Shown here one piece after another: positions 9,374 through 32,701 of a stretch of DNA of 64,000 bases. The DNA comes from Bolinopsis microptera (lineage: Eukaryota; Ctenophora; Tentaculata; Lobata; Bolinopsidae). The DNA lies in assembly GCF_026151205.1 (NCBI RefSeq), contig NC_087073.1:15519837-15583836 (forward strand). Reading direction: 5' to 3'. A program made the position numbers and the translations under genes. Below the pieces are notes generated by a model. The model saw only the letters and a list, made by a program, of their open reading frames with translations, did no database searches and was not told where the DNA came from. The stretch's first letter is position 1; each line of letters opens with the position of its first letter.

Positions 9374-9545
9374 TATATATATATATGTATATATGTATAT
9401 ATATATGCTCGCCTAGTTTACTAAGCTTGAGCACTCTAGGGAATGAATAGATCTACCGCTCAGCTTAAATGCAAAGCTCCTAACTTGTAATGAGTTTGTA
9501 GAGCACTCTGGTACCTATGTAATTCCCTCATTATTAAGGCCTTGG

Positions 9546-9556
9546 TGGCCCAGTGG
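9546..9556 (+). promoter_or_regulatory. Pol III A box, HHR repeat copy 1
   Basis: TGGCCCAGTGG matches the A-box consensus TRGYNNANNNG at every position. It lies 33 bases before the B box at 9589-9599 (GGTTCAATACC, full match to GWTCRANNC). The surrounding sequence is tRNA-like but the stems are imperfect, so it is a SINE-type promoter rather than a tRNA gene. Confidence 0.82.
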
Positions 9557-9588
9557 CGCGGCGTTGGGCCAGTAATCGCAAGGTTGCT

Positions 9589-9599
9589 GGTTCAATACC
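9589..9599 (+). promoter_or_regulatory. Pol III B box, HHR repeat copy 1
   Basis: GGTTCAATACC contains GTTCAATAC, which fits the B-box consensus exactly and is correctly spaced from the A box. Confidence 0.82.
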
Positions 9600-9632
9600 C
9601 GCCATCGGCAAAACCAACCTTGATGATTTGAG

Positions 9633-9675
9633 CCATACTGATGAGTCCTAATAGGACGAAACACTGTGTCTATGG
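9633..9675 (+). ncRNA. type I hammerhead ribozyme, copy 1
   Basis: Stem I is CCATA (9633-9637) with TATGG (9671-9675). The core CTGATGA is 9638-9644. Stem II is GTCC (9645-9648) with GGAC (9654-9657) around a TAATA loop. GAAA is 9658-9661. Stem III is three pairs, ACA with TGT, closed by a CTG loop. The cleavage triplet ends in C at 9670. All conserved core bases are present. The very short stem III is typical of animal satellite hammerheads, which often cleave efficiently only as dimers; a tandem partner is present 277 bases on. Confidence 0.93.
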
Positions 9676-9822
9676 ATATATATGCTCGCCTAGTTTACTA
9701 AGCTTGAGCACTCTAGGGAATGAATAGATCTACCGCTCAGCTTAAATGCAAAGCTCCTAACTTGTAATGAGTTTGTAGAGCACTCTGGTACCTATGTAAT
9801 TCCCTCATTATTAAGGCCTTGG

Positions 9823-9876
9823 TGGCCCAGTGGCGCGGCGTTGGGCCAGTAATCGCAAGGTTGCTGGTTCAATACC
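9823..9876 (+). promoter_or_regulatory. Pol III A and B boxes, HHR repeat copy 2
   Basis: Same A box (9823-9833) and B box (9866-9876) as in copy 1, shifted by 277 bases. Confidence 0.8.
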
Positions 9877-9909
9877 CGCCATCGGCAAAACCAACCTTGA
9901 TGATTTGAG

Positions 9910-9952
9910 CCATACTGATGAGTCCTAATAGGACGAAACACTGTGTCTATGG
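9910..9952 (+). ncRNA. type I hammerhead ribozyme, copy 2
   Basis: Identical to copy 1 through core and stems; predicted cleavage after 9947. The base composition after stem I differs slightly (TATGGATATG rather than TATGGATATA) as the repeat runs out into the flanking microsatellite. Confidence 0.92.
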
Positions 9953-9976
9953 ATATGTATATATGTATGTATATAT

Positions 9977-12016
9977 TTGACCAAAACCCATAATCATGGG
10001 TAGAGTGTACCGCTGCCAGTGTCTCTCTTTTCCAAACAAAAGGAAATGATATTAATTTGAGGAACAGTCCGCTAATGCAAATTGATACCGAGAATGAAAT
10101 CGGTCGCTCGCTTTTTCAAATCAATAAGCTTTATTACAATTCGTGAGCCGTGATCGAATGGAAAAAGCGAGCGACCGATTTCATTCTCGGTATCAATTTG
10201 CATTAGCGGACTGTTCCTCAAATTAATATCATTTCCTTTTGTTTGGAAAAGAGAGACACTGGCAGCGGTACACTCTACCCATGATTATGGGTTTTGGTCA
10301 AATATCATCTCTTTTTGATTATAATGTCAGGATAATTTACACAGCTAGTCGAAACTTCATTAACAAGGAGGTAATTTCGACGATTTCGAAATTCTGCCTT
10401 TGAAAACGTTTCCTTGTGTTTAGTTAGGTATATCTGTCGATAACCGACTGAATATGGCACTTTTTACTCATTCAAGTTGGCATTAAATTCATATATAATG
10501 CCATTTAAATATCGTGGAAAGCAGAATATATTCGAAATCACGAATGAGCAAAATTCTCACCTTTCGCACGTGCAAACTTTGAGCGGACGTTACGTGCGCA
10601 TACAATATTGAATCACCGTAAATTTTTGCGTAGTGGTATTTAATATATAGTTTGATAAGCATGCAAAGTTTCAGAAGATTTCAAAAAGAACTTGGATCAC
10701 AACGGGACTCCAAAGTTGATAAAAATCGTGAAAATAACAATTTTTAGTGATTTTAGCTATTTTAAATCAATTTGGGCGTGTCCCCACGTGTGCAACTTTT
10801 CGATTTTTAACTTTAAAACTAGCCTATAACACAATTTACACCTTTAAGAAGCAAAATTGAGCTCCACAACCCAAGGGATAGCCCAACACCAGAGAATACT
10901 AATTCACAACTTTTGTGTTTTTATAAAATTATTCTTCAAAAAAGCACTAACTTCAATAGCAAATATCTTTATGAAGGAGTAAGGTAGGAAACTTTTCCGG
11001 TAGATTTTTTCCTTTTCACCCTTTTGAAAAAAGGCAATAGTGAAAGGTTACGAATGGACGTTTTTGCAGAAAAACGTGGATTTTGGGGATTGCAGTAGGT
11101 GGGTCAAATATATGTCGTGTTGCTTCCGTTCGTTACCATGTCAACTTGCCGCGCGCACGCGCGCGAGGATTGCTTGCGGAGATGTGGTGTATAGCTAGTC
11201 TGTGGTCAATGAATGCGCGGCGCACGAGCGTATTTTAATGTATACTAGTAATGTATAATATTTTGTAATAAGCCCAACTTGAACGTGGCACGCGTAGTGG
11301 AATTAAATTAAACTGGAATTAAACTTGAAATTACCAAGGAGAACACTAACGGACTCGTTTTGGCTATACATCAATTCATAAATAAGTTCATATATAAAAC
11401 AAAAGCCGAATAAAAGTATGAAAATAAAAATCTTAAAATTTAACCGCGTTACAATATCACGAAGTGGAAATAAAATCAAATATAATAATTTAAATGCTAA
11501 TAGAAATACTGGATGTGTGCATAAAAGCAAGTCCAAGGAGATATGTTAAACTACATAAGGTGATGGGACGTTGAAGGAGATGAGTAGGGGACGTGAAGCG
11601 AGGAGTGTATTGATGTTTCAATATTATTATTATAGCTGATTAGAGCTTATATTAATAGTTATAGTGAAATGGAAATCTAGCGTCCGCCAAGACGAAACAA
11701 CGGGCGCAATTCTTGTTAGAATGCTTGAACAATTATCTAAGATGAAAATGTCCTCAGATTTTGAATAAAATTACTCTTTAATGGTGTAAAATCGATTTGA
11801 AAAGTTGTTGTTTTGTCAAAAATCAAGTTTAAAAAACACTTAAATTGATGACGTCATCAAGTGATGATGATGATGATAAATTATTTTTCAATATAAAGTA
11901 AACTAAAGTATAAACGATTATCTTTAAAACCTGTGGTTCGAAATGACTGTATCTTTTATACTTTTGAATCTACGGACACTTAAATGTAGGCTACAATTGA
12001 CTGCAAAAAGCGTCTA
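9977..12016 (+). repeat. palindrome unit 2, intact hairpin, with internal insertion
   Basis: Begins with a large inverted repeat: arms 9977-10117 and 10161-10302, nearly perfect, around a 43-base loop. The 1 kb body follows, interrupted at 11011-11717 by about 0.7 kb absent from units 1, 3 and 4; that insert starts near CCTTTTCACCC, ends near GCAATTCTTGTT, and encodes nothing recognisable. The body resumes at AGAATGCTTGAAC and includes TTGATGACGTCATCAA at 11845-11860. Confidence 0.88.
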
Positions 12017-31638: not shown

Positions 31639-32701
31639 GGACCTTTACTGATAGTTGAAATTCGACATATGACGTCATCTAGCGTCATCTAGCGTCATCT
31701 AGCGTGAAATATCGCCAGATGATGATAGATGACGCTAGATGACGCTAGATGACGCTAGATGACGCCAATTAGCGACATTGTCGCTAAGTGCACGGCACCT
31801 TTCGAATGTCGCTATCTAGCGCTATCTAGCGCTATCTAGCGCTATCTAGCGCTATATGACGCTATATGACGCTAGATGACGCTAGATGACGCTAGATGAC
31901 GCTAGATGACGCTAAGCACGCAGCACTGACGCCAGGCGCTATTTTCATAAAATTTCCGCCCTTTTTTTTGCGACATCTAGCGGTATCTAGCGCTATCTAA
32001 CGCTATATGTCGCAACGACATCTGACGCAGCGCTATCTAGCGCTATCTAGCGCTATCTGGCGCTATCTAGCGGAGAATGTCGGTTTGTGACAGTTTACGC
32101 TAGATAGCGCTAGATAGCGCTAGATAGCGCTATATGTCGCAACGACATCTGACGCTATATAGCGCTATCTGGCGCTATATAGCGCTAGATAGCGTGAACT
32201 GTCGTTAACTGTCGTTAACTGACTTATCCCGCTATCCAGCGCTTGATGTCGCCTGCGTCAGATGTCGTCGCGACAGATGTCGTCAGATGACGTCAGATAT
32301 CACTAGATGGCGTCAGATAGCGTCAGATGTCGCGGCAACATATGACGCTAGATGACGCTAGATGTCGTCCCTAGAATTTTTATGAAAATAGCGCTATCTG
32401 TCGCCTGGCGTCAGTGCTGCGTGCTTAGCGTCATCTAGCGTCATCTAGCGTCATCTAGCGTCATCTAGCGTCATATAGCGTCATATAGCGCTAGATAGCG
32501 CTAGATAGCGCTAGATAGCGCTAGATAGCGACATTCGAAAGGTGCCGTGCACTTAGCGGCAATGTCGCTAATTGGCGTCATCTAGCGTCATCTAGCGTCA
32601 TCTAGCGTCATCTATCATCATCTGGCGATATTTCACGCTAGATGACGCTAGATGACGCTAGATGACGTCATATGTCGAATTTCAACTATCAGTAAAGGTC
32701 C
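31639..32701. mobile_element. 1.06 kb foldback element built from 10-base TAGCGTCATC units
   Basis: Arms of about 315 bases (31639-31955 and 32385-32701) are nearly perfect inverted copies. The ends are GGACCTTTACTG and its complement, flanked by an 8-base duplication GAATTTTG at 31631-31638 and 32702-32709. Almost the whole element is tandem or degenerate 10-base units, TAGCGTCATC, its complement GATGACGCTA, and TAGCGCTATC variants, including the centre. There is no coding capacity. The end sequence and duplication size are close to MULE-type elements, but no transposase is present. It lies 80 bases upstream of the receptor start codon at 32783. Confidence 0.9.

What the first reader, a model, noticed from the sequence alone, without database searches (positions are those of the whole stretch)
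9407..9952. Tandem 277-base element joining a tRNA-like Pol III promoter to a complete hammerhead ribozyme
Two apparently identical head-to-tail copies each carry perfect-consensus A and B boxes and a type I hammerhead with every conserved core base. Cleavage sites after 9670 and 9947 are exactly one period apart, so a transcript would release a unit-length 277-nt RNA that could circularise. The identity of the two copies implies recent insertion or homogenisation. Tandem HHR retrozymes and the Schistosoma Sm-alpha repeat are known; this family, with a 3-bp stem III and tRNA-like module inside the monomer, may be undescribed.
Basis: partly seen in the sequence, partly recalled or inferred. Interest (0 to 1): 0.87.

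Follow-up and report, generated by a model that had tools for sequence, protein, structure and literature searches.

The report
Ribozyme-tRNA hybrid jumping RNA element
A small non-coding mobile element, probably in a comb jelly, joins a tRNA-like promoter module to a self-cutting ribozyme, and its insertion scars suggest that it spreads by being copied round and round from an RNA circle, perhaps by a Penelope-type reverse transcriptase.

Summary
Confirmed: window 9399-9952 is two identical 277-nt units, each with a type I hammerhead (above Rfam's gathering score) and a tRNA-like stretch (full-length tRNA-model alignment, below gathering). A perfect 16-nt direct repeat flanks the pair: it is an insertion. 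The genome, most likely a ctenophore's, gave 66 mapped insertions; 59 end at one base, five nt past the predicted ribozyme cut and just before an AT tract, while 5' ends scatter and arrays reach 6.5 laps. That scar fits reverse transcription primed at a fixed point on RNA continuous across the cleavage site: a religated circle or an uncut multimer. A Penelope-like family ends at the same kind of (AT)n site, and one locus looks like a Penelope-retrozyme chimera, though nested insertion is not excluded. I file it as a metazoan non-LTR retrozyme, new variant: it carries a Pol III-type module that a 2020 review says retrozymes seem to lack; Schistosoma Sm-alpha already pairs A/B boxes with a hammerhead. 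Transcription, cleavage and circles are untested. The boxes are usually intact but not measurably more conserved than their surroundings, and some arrays mix subfamilies.

The parts
9383..9398 (.). Left copy of the 16-nt target-site duplication ATATGTATATATGTAT
   Evidence: Exact repeat of 9953-9968, directly abutting the insert
9399..9675 (+). Retrozyme unit 1 (277 nt)
   Evidence: 100% identical to unit 2
9676..9952 (+). Retrozyme unit 2 (277 nt)
   Evidence: 77 matches in G000
9399..9406 (+). AT tract of unit 1 (unit 1-8; proposed annealing site for the nicked AT target; also lies in the asymmetric loop of hammerhead stem I by my reading)
   Evidence: ATAAATAT in most full units, ATATATAT in a few including this copy (rows); role inferred
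9676..9683 (+). AT tract of unit 2, the inter-unit junction
   Evidence: role inferred
9407..9536 (+). Body of unit 1 (unit 9-138), strongly conserved, no known family
   Evidence: Mean minor-base fraction 0.023 in 28 clean units; predicted hairpins; no Rfam hit other than the hammerhead at gathering
9539..9610 (+). tRNA-like module, unit 1 (A box 9546-9556, B box 9589-9599)
   Evidence: RF00005 full-length alignment, 15.8 bits, below gathering 29; boxes
9816..9887 (+). tRNA-like module, unit 2 (A box 9823-9833, B box 9866-9876)
9631..9677 (+). Type I hammerhead ribozyme 1, predicted cleavage after 9670
   Evidence: RF00163, 35.9 bits, above gathering 34
9908..9954 (+). Type I hammerhead ribozyme 2, predicted cleavage after 9947
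   Evidence: RF00163, 35.9 bits
9952..9952 (+). Fixed 3' end of the insert: unit base 277, five nt 3' of the cleavage site
   Evidence: Same end base in 59 of 66 mapped insertions
9953..9968 (.). Right copy of the 16-nt target-site duplication
10028..10031 (+). First TTTT on the + strand from the start of the array: possible Pol III stop (inferred)
   Evidence: the unit itself has no TTTT

Best explanation
It is a non-autonomous, non-LTR retrozyme with a SINE-like promoter module. Proposed cycle: (1) RNA polymerase III starts near unit position ~137 from the internal A/B boxes (inferred). (2) Any transcript that crosses two hammerheads cuts itself after GUC at 9670 and 9947 and frees a 277-nt RNA, which a host RtcB-type ligase closes into a circle (inferred from published retrozymes). 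(3) A reverse transcriptase, most likely of the canonical Penelope-like family abundant in this genome, nicks (AT)n DNA. The nicked strand anneals to the AU tract that follows UAUGG in the circle, and copying starts at unit base 277. (4) Copying runs round the circle a fractional number of laps and stops at scattered places, leaving insertions with a fixed 3' end, a ragged 5' end and a target duplication of about 12-16 nt. Shown by sequence: the hammerhead and tRNA-like motifs, the fixed 3' end, the scattered 5' ends, the AT target, the duplications (as a group, and perfect in the window), and a Penelope-retrozyme junction at one locus. Inferred: Pol III, cleavage, the circle itself and the identity of the enzyme.
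For: Hammerhead above gathering. 66 insertions mapped; 3' end exactly at unit 277 in 59 of 66, or 53 of 59 after removing seven segmental-duplicate twins. A search with the 5' half alone (unit 1-140), blind to the 3' end, gave 40 scored matches of 54 candidates, all in loci already mapped. 5' ends scatter; 17 of 59 groups exceed 1.05 laps, the longest being 6.53, 5.43 and 4.52. The end lies 5 nt beyond the cleavage site, so the template was continuous across it (inference). The 3' flank starts AT in 51 of 53 and is 91% A+T in its first 20 nt. The match to the AU tract is in phase at the junction (mean run 3.1 nt vs 1.1 at control offsets). Flank repeats average 8.7 nt against 5.9 +- 0.45 for mismatched flank pairs, above all 200 shuffles (largest 7.26); 28 of 53 are 10 nt or longer. 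Penelope-like family: 1,010-aa frame with C-terminal GIY-YIG, two copies 99.3% identical over 3,505 nt; 103 of 119 exact 3' anchors run into 12 A/T. Locus L070: a 173-nt, 97.7% Penelope ORF piece fused to retrozyme 147-277, with a 12-nt, one-mismatch repeat outside both (repeat read by eye). Predicted RNA fold z -4.27, 0 of 200 shuffles as stable.
Against: No RNA data: transcription, cleavage and circles are not shown. Some arrays are not plain copies of one circle: L014 alternates two subfamilies, and in L014, L018 and L027 units are less alike within the array than to some unit elsewhere (3 of 7 multi-unit arrays; WIN, L012, L019 favour within, L011 ties). This needs template switching, later exchange, or an uncut multimer as template. 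14 of 53 insertions show no flank repeat of 4 nt or more, and of the 28 with 10 nt or more only 17 abut the 5' junction within 3 nt (the other 11 lie 7-30 nt off); many are plain AT runs. Box positions are not more conserved than the rest of the tRNA-like stretch (P 0.31); RNAalifold's covariation term gives no support (+0.37), with two-sided changes in 3 of 90 pairs. L070 also has a Penelope-type 3' end downstream of the retrozyme (80.6% over 103 columns), so an insertion into an older Penelope copy followed by deletion is possible; the very different identities (97.7 and 80.6%) argue against one original copy. Adjacency to GIY-YIG hits could follow from the shared AT preference alone. Unit and Penelope loci share no sequence, and no Rfam hammerhead was found in the four Penelope loci. 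LINEs were not surveyed.
Confidence: 0.6

Rival explanations
1. Uncut multimeric transcripts, not circles, are the template: the reverse transcriptase starts at an internal AU tract of a linear multimer read from a genomic array, as the Anolis Penelope enzyme starts internally in vitro on unprocessed RNA.
For: Also predicts a 3' end beyond the cleavage site and scattered 5' ends; explains the mixed-subfamily array L014; the published enzyme starts internally and hammerhead mutants still insert in vitro (PMC11167929, parts 1 and 2 of 4 read).
Against: Only 11 of 59 groups hold two or more hammerheads that match a core pattern, and those would be expected to cut such a transcript. The longest arrays need a source at least as long (inference).
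Confidence: 0.3
2. An ordinary tandem satellite grown by unequal crossing-over, with the hammerhead a passenger.
For: Head-to-tail arrays; L014, L018 and L027 are internally heterogeneous.
Against: 40 of 59 groups are shorter than 0.95 lap (one of them, L029, a full unit with deletions); places on all 13 large contigs; fixed 3' end; target duplications.
Confidence: 0.04
3. Mobilised by a LINE rather than a Penelope-like element.
For: 3' anchoring, 5' truncation and 12-16 nt duplications are also LINE-like (established knowledge); I did not survey LINEs here.
Against: (AT)n terminus shared with the Penelope family; Penelope-retrozyme junction at L070 (with the caveat given); 4 of 65 places within 1.5 kb of a GIY-YIG hit vs 0.11 expected, 6 of 65 within 5 kb vs 0.37, two of these six sharing one hit, though shared AT preference could cause this.
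Confidence: 0.3
4. The tRNA-like stretch is not a promoter but an RNA-structure, ligase or export module, and transcription is read-through from neighbours.
For: It is the most variable region (minor-base fraction 0.100 vs 0.006 for the hammerhead); in the minimum-energy fold it is a long hairpin, not a cloverleaf.
Against: Boxes intact in 25 of 28 (A) and 24 of 28 (B) clean units; no TTTT in 34 of 39 full units.
Confidence: 0.35

Closest known systems
Metazoan non-LTR retrozymes (Acropora, Mytilus, axolotl; PMC7229834, parts 2-4 of 6 read, passages)
   Same: Type I hammerhead, ~150-450 bp tandem units, GC below 50%, target duplications longer than 4 bp, co-existence with Penelope-like elements
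   Different: Here a tRNA-like module with A/B boxes lies inside the unit (the review PMC7761336, section 9, says retrozymes do not seem to harbour promoters); at least 66 insertions mapped here (a lower bound) against thousands of motifs reported there; 40 of 59 groups are under 0.95 lap; a fixed 3' end 5 nt past the cut is documented
Schistosoma Sm-alpha / Sj-alpha SINE-like elements
   Same: Hammerhead plus A and B boxes (PMC2576457, passages); SINE-like, related to tRNA-Gln-derived elements (PMC2770079, passages)
   Different: Other phylum; copy number estimated to exceed 10,000 there. The primary paper (Ferbeyre 1998) is not held and I had no Sm-alpha sequence, so homology, tandem structure and junctions were not compared
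Penelope-like element Poseidon of Anolis (PMC11167929, outline and parts 1-2 of 4)
   Same: AT-rich target, internal start of reverse transcription near a hammerhead, tandem units
   Different: That one is autonomous, and its start site is not homologous to the target; here the end abuts an AU tract that matches the target
tRNA-derived SINEs
   Same: tRNA-like stretch with boxes, non-autonomous, 5' truncation
   Different: The tRNA-like stretch sits in the middle of the unit; there is a ribozyme; multi-lap arrays form. A shared LINE tail was not looked for

Membership tests
Metazoan non-LTR retrozyme | Type I hammerhead in the unit | tested here: met
   RF00163 above gathering in both units; in G000 69 hits of 74 scored candidates (35,411 in the first look), 67 above gathering
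Metazoan non-LTR retrozyme | Short tandem units (150-450 bp) | tested here: met
   277 bp x 2 here; up to 6.5 laps elsewhere
Metazoan non-LTR retrozyme | No protein-coding region | tested here: met
   No frame of 50 aa or more with an ATG/GTG/TTG start overlaps the array
Metazoan non-LTR retrozyme | GC below 50% | tested here: met
   45.8%
Metazoan non-LTR retrozyme | Target duplication longer than 4 bp | tested here: met
   16 nt, perfect, in the window; 28 of 53 at 10 nt or more, 14 of 53 with none
Metazoan non-LTR retrozyme | No LTR, PBS or PPT | not tested
   Not searched for specifically
Metazoan non-LTR retrozyme | Self-cleavage and expression as a circular RNA | not testable with these tools
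   No RNA data or bench work available
Metazoan non-LTR retrozyme | Penelope-like elements in the same genome | tested here: met
   Long GIY-YIG frames with RT-like motifs by my reading; no Pfam or PDB RT hit for L087, a weak NCBIfam RT hit for L090 (23 bits, cut-off 300)
Metazoan non-LTR retrozyme | Those Penelope-like elements carry minimal hammerheads | tested here: inconclusive
   None in L087, L088, L089, L090 by Rfam at E<=2, but minimal hammerheads can score low; one family has a sub-threshold twister-like motif
tRNA-derived SINE | tRNA-related sequence with A and B boxes | tested here: met
   Full-length but sub-gathering RF00005 alignment
tRNA-derived SINE | tRNA-related head at the 5' end | tested here: not met
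   Module aligns at about unit 141-212 of 277; only 5 of 66 insertions begin at unit 132-135
tRNA-derived SINE | Pol III transcription | not testable with these tools
   No RNA or chromatin data
Schistosoma Sm-alpha | Sequence homology to Sm-alpha | not tested
   No Sm-alpha sequence in the collections I used
Penelope-like element | Encodes RT with GIY-YIG endonuclease | tested here: not met
   Retrozyme has no frame of 50 aa and no BLAST match to the four Penelope loci

The most novel reading that the evidence does not exclude
A SINE-retrozyme hybrid in a ctenophore: a Pol III-driven RNA circle that parasitises a Penelope-like enzyme by presenting an AU tract like the one at which the Penelope family's own copies end. 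Rolling-circle target-primed reverse transcription is then legible in the genome as a fixed 3' end with fractional laps.
Probability: 0.4. Interest if true: 0.82.

Novelty: new variant of a known kind. Interest (0 to 1): 0.66.

Why it matters
How animal retrozymes get back into DNA is an open question: the 2020 review states that their sequences show no conserved motif that would reveal the partner element, and that they do not seem to harbour promoters (PMC7761336, section 9). This family offers leads on both: a fixed priming point on a template continuous across the ribozyme cut, fractional-lap arrays, an AT target shared with a Penelope family that has long open frames, one possible chimera, and a candidate internal promoter. 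It makes the circle-to-DNA step directly testable with one purified enzyme and one 277-nt RNA.

Tried and rejected
Satellite grown by crossing-over: rejected; most groups are single, truncated and dispersed. A separate SINE family with the same head: not found; a head-only search gave 40 scored of 58 candidates, all in mapped loci, and a diverged head 21 of 21 candidates, 20 in mapped loci and one decayed copy; diverged SINEs could be missed. Selection on the Pol III boxes: permutation test not significant. Covariation support for the fold: no net support. Homology of unit and Penelope loci: none. Hammerhead in four Penelope loci: none. Prokaryote and viral collections: 0 exact matches of the hammerhead core. 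Literature: 0 papers hold 'hammerhead ribozyme' and 'ctenophore'; 'ctenophor' is absent from the main texts of PMC7229834, PMC3088659 and PMC6155905; one paper holds retrozyme + polymerase III + promoter + hammerhead (listing only; its title concerns LTR retrotransposons). The library holds open-licence papers only.

Rows dropped: seven twins (L027, L028, L042, L049, L052, L057, L064) before the 53 and 59 counts, chosen by shared flanks and 5' points; pairs that share one flank only (L022/L023, the two in L021) were kept. 11 of 39 units (L018, L027, L036) were set aside as noisy before the variability figures. L011 is one array split by another insert and counts twice among the 66. L078, a decayed copy, is not among the 66 but is among the 65 places. 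Lap figures use aligned length only.

Full report
OBSERVATION. Window 9399-9952 is two 277-nt units, 100% identical, head to tail. Each holds a Rfam type I hammerhead at 35.9 bits, above the gathering score of 34, with cleavage triplets ending at 9670 and 9947. Each also holds a stretch that aligns to the whole tRNA model, but at 15.8 bits, below the gathering score of 29. A strict A+B box pair at tRNA-like spacing arises in 3 of 20,000 dinucleotide shuffles of the dimer. No frame of 50 aa overlaps the array, and the unit contains no TTTT.

IT IS AN INSERTION. A perfect 16-nt repeat, ATATGTATATATGTAT, lies immediately on both sides (9383-9398 and 9953-9968). Its two G-bearing interruptions make it more informative than a plain AT run. 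The inserted length, 554, is exactly two laps.

THE FAMILY. The genome (264.65 Mb, 232 contigs, 13 of them chromosome-sized) gave 77 matches to the unit (40 of 76 candidates scored), 69 hammerhead matches (67 above gathering; 74 candidates scored of 35,411) and 87 matches to a 21-mer across the cleavage site, with 0 for the reversed control. I cut out these loci and mapped 66 insertions. The figures are lower bounds, because the searches score only the best candidates.

FIXED 3' END. In 59 of 66 insertions the last element base is unit 277, that is GTC^TATGG, five bases beyond the cut. The other seven end at 269 (array interrupted by another insert), 274, 275, 276, 187, 185 and 133. Two of the searches that supplied loci need the 3' end and so favour it. 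Two do not: the 277-mer search and the 5'-half search, whose 40 scored matches of 54 candidates all fell in loci already mapped. After removing seven twins made by segmental duplication, 53 of 59 end at 277. The 5' end is scattered: 40 of 59 groups are shorter than 0.95 lap (one, L029, being a full unit with deletions), 17 exceed 1.05, and the longest are 6.53, 5.43 and 4.52 laps.

TARGET. Among the 53, the 3' flank begins AT in 51 and is 91% A+T in its first 20 nt (72% in the next 20). Inside arrays the corresponding junction reads mostly ATAAATAT, but only 1 of 53 outer flanks begins so; I infer that the inner junction is element sequence and the outer one target. The outer flank is in phase with the AU tract (mean run 3.1 vs 1.1 at control offsets). 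Flank-to-flank repeats average 8.7 nt, against 5.9 +- 0.45 (largest 7.26 of 200) for mismatched pairs. Case by case the evidence is uneven: 28 of 53 have 10 nt or more, 17 of these abutting the 5' junction within 3 nt and 11 lying 7-30 nt off; 14 of 53 have none of 4 nt.

MEANING. A linear monomer released by the ribozyme would end at GTC. An end five bases further on needs an RNA continuous across the cleavage site: a religated circle or an uncut multimer (inference). Fractional laps fit a circle well. Against a single-circle origin, array L014 alternates two subfamilies, and three of seven multi-unit arrays are less uniform inside than their best outside match (L014, L018, L027); WIN, L012 and L019 favour within, L011 ties. 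L018 and L027 are rich in small indels and may partly be assembly noise.

PARTNER. The genome gave 150 scored GIY-YIG matches of 525 candidates, not all necessarily transposons. Two Penelope-like types were read. L087/L088 is canonical: 1,010 aa, GIY-YIG at residues 883-929, reverse-transcriptase-like motifs (my reading, from memory; Pfam and PDB searches gave no RT hit), 266-bp repeated ends in L088, and 99.3% identity between the two copies. L090 has an N-terminal GIY-YIG and a weak NCBIfam RT hit. A third locus, L089, has a frame that the ORF listing does not list; a six-frame check shows 906 codons without a stop, and it was not studied further. The canonical family's 3' end runs into 12 A/T in 103 of 119 exact anchors. 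Its own tandem junction carries an internal AT tract just after the same end (L088), in parallel with the retrozyme. Of 65 retrozyme places, 4 lie within 1.5 kb of a GIY-YIG hit (0.11 expected on a uniform genome), but a shared taste for AT repeats could explain that.

THE L070 JUNCTION. A 5'-truncated retrozyme (147-277) is fused directly, with about 1 nt overlap, to a 173-nt, 97.7%-identical piece of the Penelope ORF, and a 12-nt, one-mismatch repeat lies outside the pair (repeat read by eye; its last bases could also be Penelope sequence). It looks as if the enzyme had jumped from retrozyme RNA to its own message. But a Penelope-type 3' end, 80.6% identical, lies about 150 nt downstream, so an insertion into an older Penelope copy followed by deletion is not excluded; the unequal identities argue against one original copy. 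It is one case.

tRNA-LIKE MODULE. It is the fastest-changing part: minor-base fraction 0.100, against 0.023 for the body and 0.006 for the hammerhead, in 28 clean units of 39. The A box is intact in 25 of 28 and the B box (A or T at base 3) in 24 of 28, but box positions are not significantly quieter than their neighbours (P 0.31). Over all 39 units the figures are 32 and 29; strict B boxes occur in 5 of 39. As I recall, A at that position is normal in eukaryotic initiator tRNA. In the predicted fold (-96 kcal/mol, z -4.27) the region is a long hairpin. Across 16 units, 3 of 90 pairs show two-sided changes and the covariation term gives no net support. So the promoter reading is plausible, not proven. 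If active, its place upstream of the hammerhead means that one promoter in unit 1 suffices to release a full unit from a dimer.

ORGANISM. That ML032222a is from the ctenophore Mnemiopsis leidyi is recalled. I conclude ctenophore, probably Bolinopsis.

COMPARISON. As far as tested it meets the criteria of metazoan non-LTR retrozymes (PMC7229834, parts read). It differs by the promoter-like module, which the review PMC7761336 says retrozymes do not seem to have (section 9). Schistosoma Sm-alpha already combines boxes and a hammerhead (passages). The Anolis Penelope enzyme starts internally and prefers AT targets, which makes the proposed partner mechanistically reasonable. A review states that all available Penelope sequences display hammerhead motifs (PMC6155905, passage); Rfam found none in the four loci examined here.

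VERDICT. A real mobile element; a new variant of a known kind. Interest lies mainly in the readable record of insertion primed at a fixed point on a circle-like template, and in the candidate Penelope partner.

Noticed in passing
L090 3274-3318; also L092, L094, L096, L097, L100: Twister-P5-like motif (26.8-30.1 bits, gathering 37.6) 5' of the frame of an N-terminal GIY-YIG Penelope-like family, in 6 of 11 loci examined (the ten further loci were taken as family members by their similar GIY-YIG scores only). Sub-threshold and untested, but it lies roughly where the Anolis Penelope element carries its hammerhead.
   Followed up: partly
window 9973-10305: A near-perfect inverted repeat (153-nt arms, 98%, 27 nt apart) beside the array's right target repeat; probably a hairpin-type mobile element.
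   Followed up: no
L014 (C6:1741500-1744100): Array of five full units that alternates two subfamilies (units 1, 2, 5 versus 3, 4), hard to square with copying of one circle.
   Followed up: partly
L051, L052: Retrozyme copies (twins) with an internal piece repeated at the 5' junction, as after a template jump (read by eye).
   Followed up: no
L061, L062, L064: Hammerhead-only 3' ends preceded by a shared ~40-nt non-retrozyme sequence; possibly another RNA joined by template switching.
   Followed up: no
window 31673-32667: Dense 10-bp tandem repeats (CGCTAGATGA-like and its complement) whose array boundaries mirror each other about position 32170, suggesting a ~1-kb palindrome.
   Followed up: no
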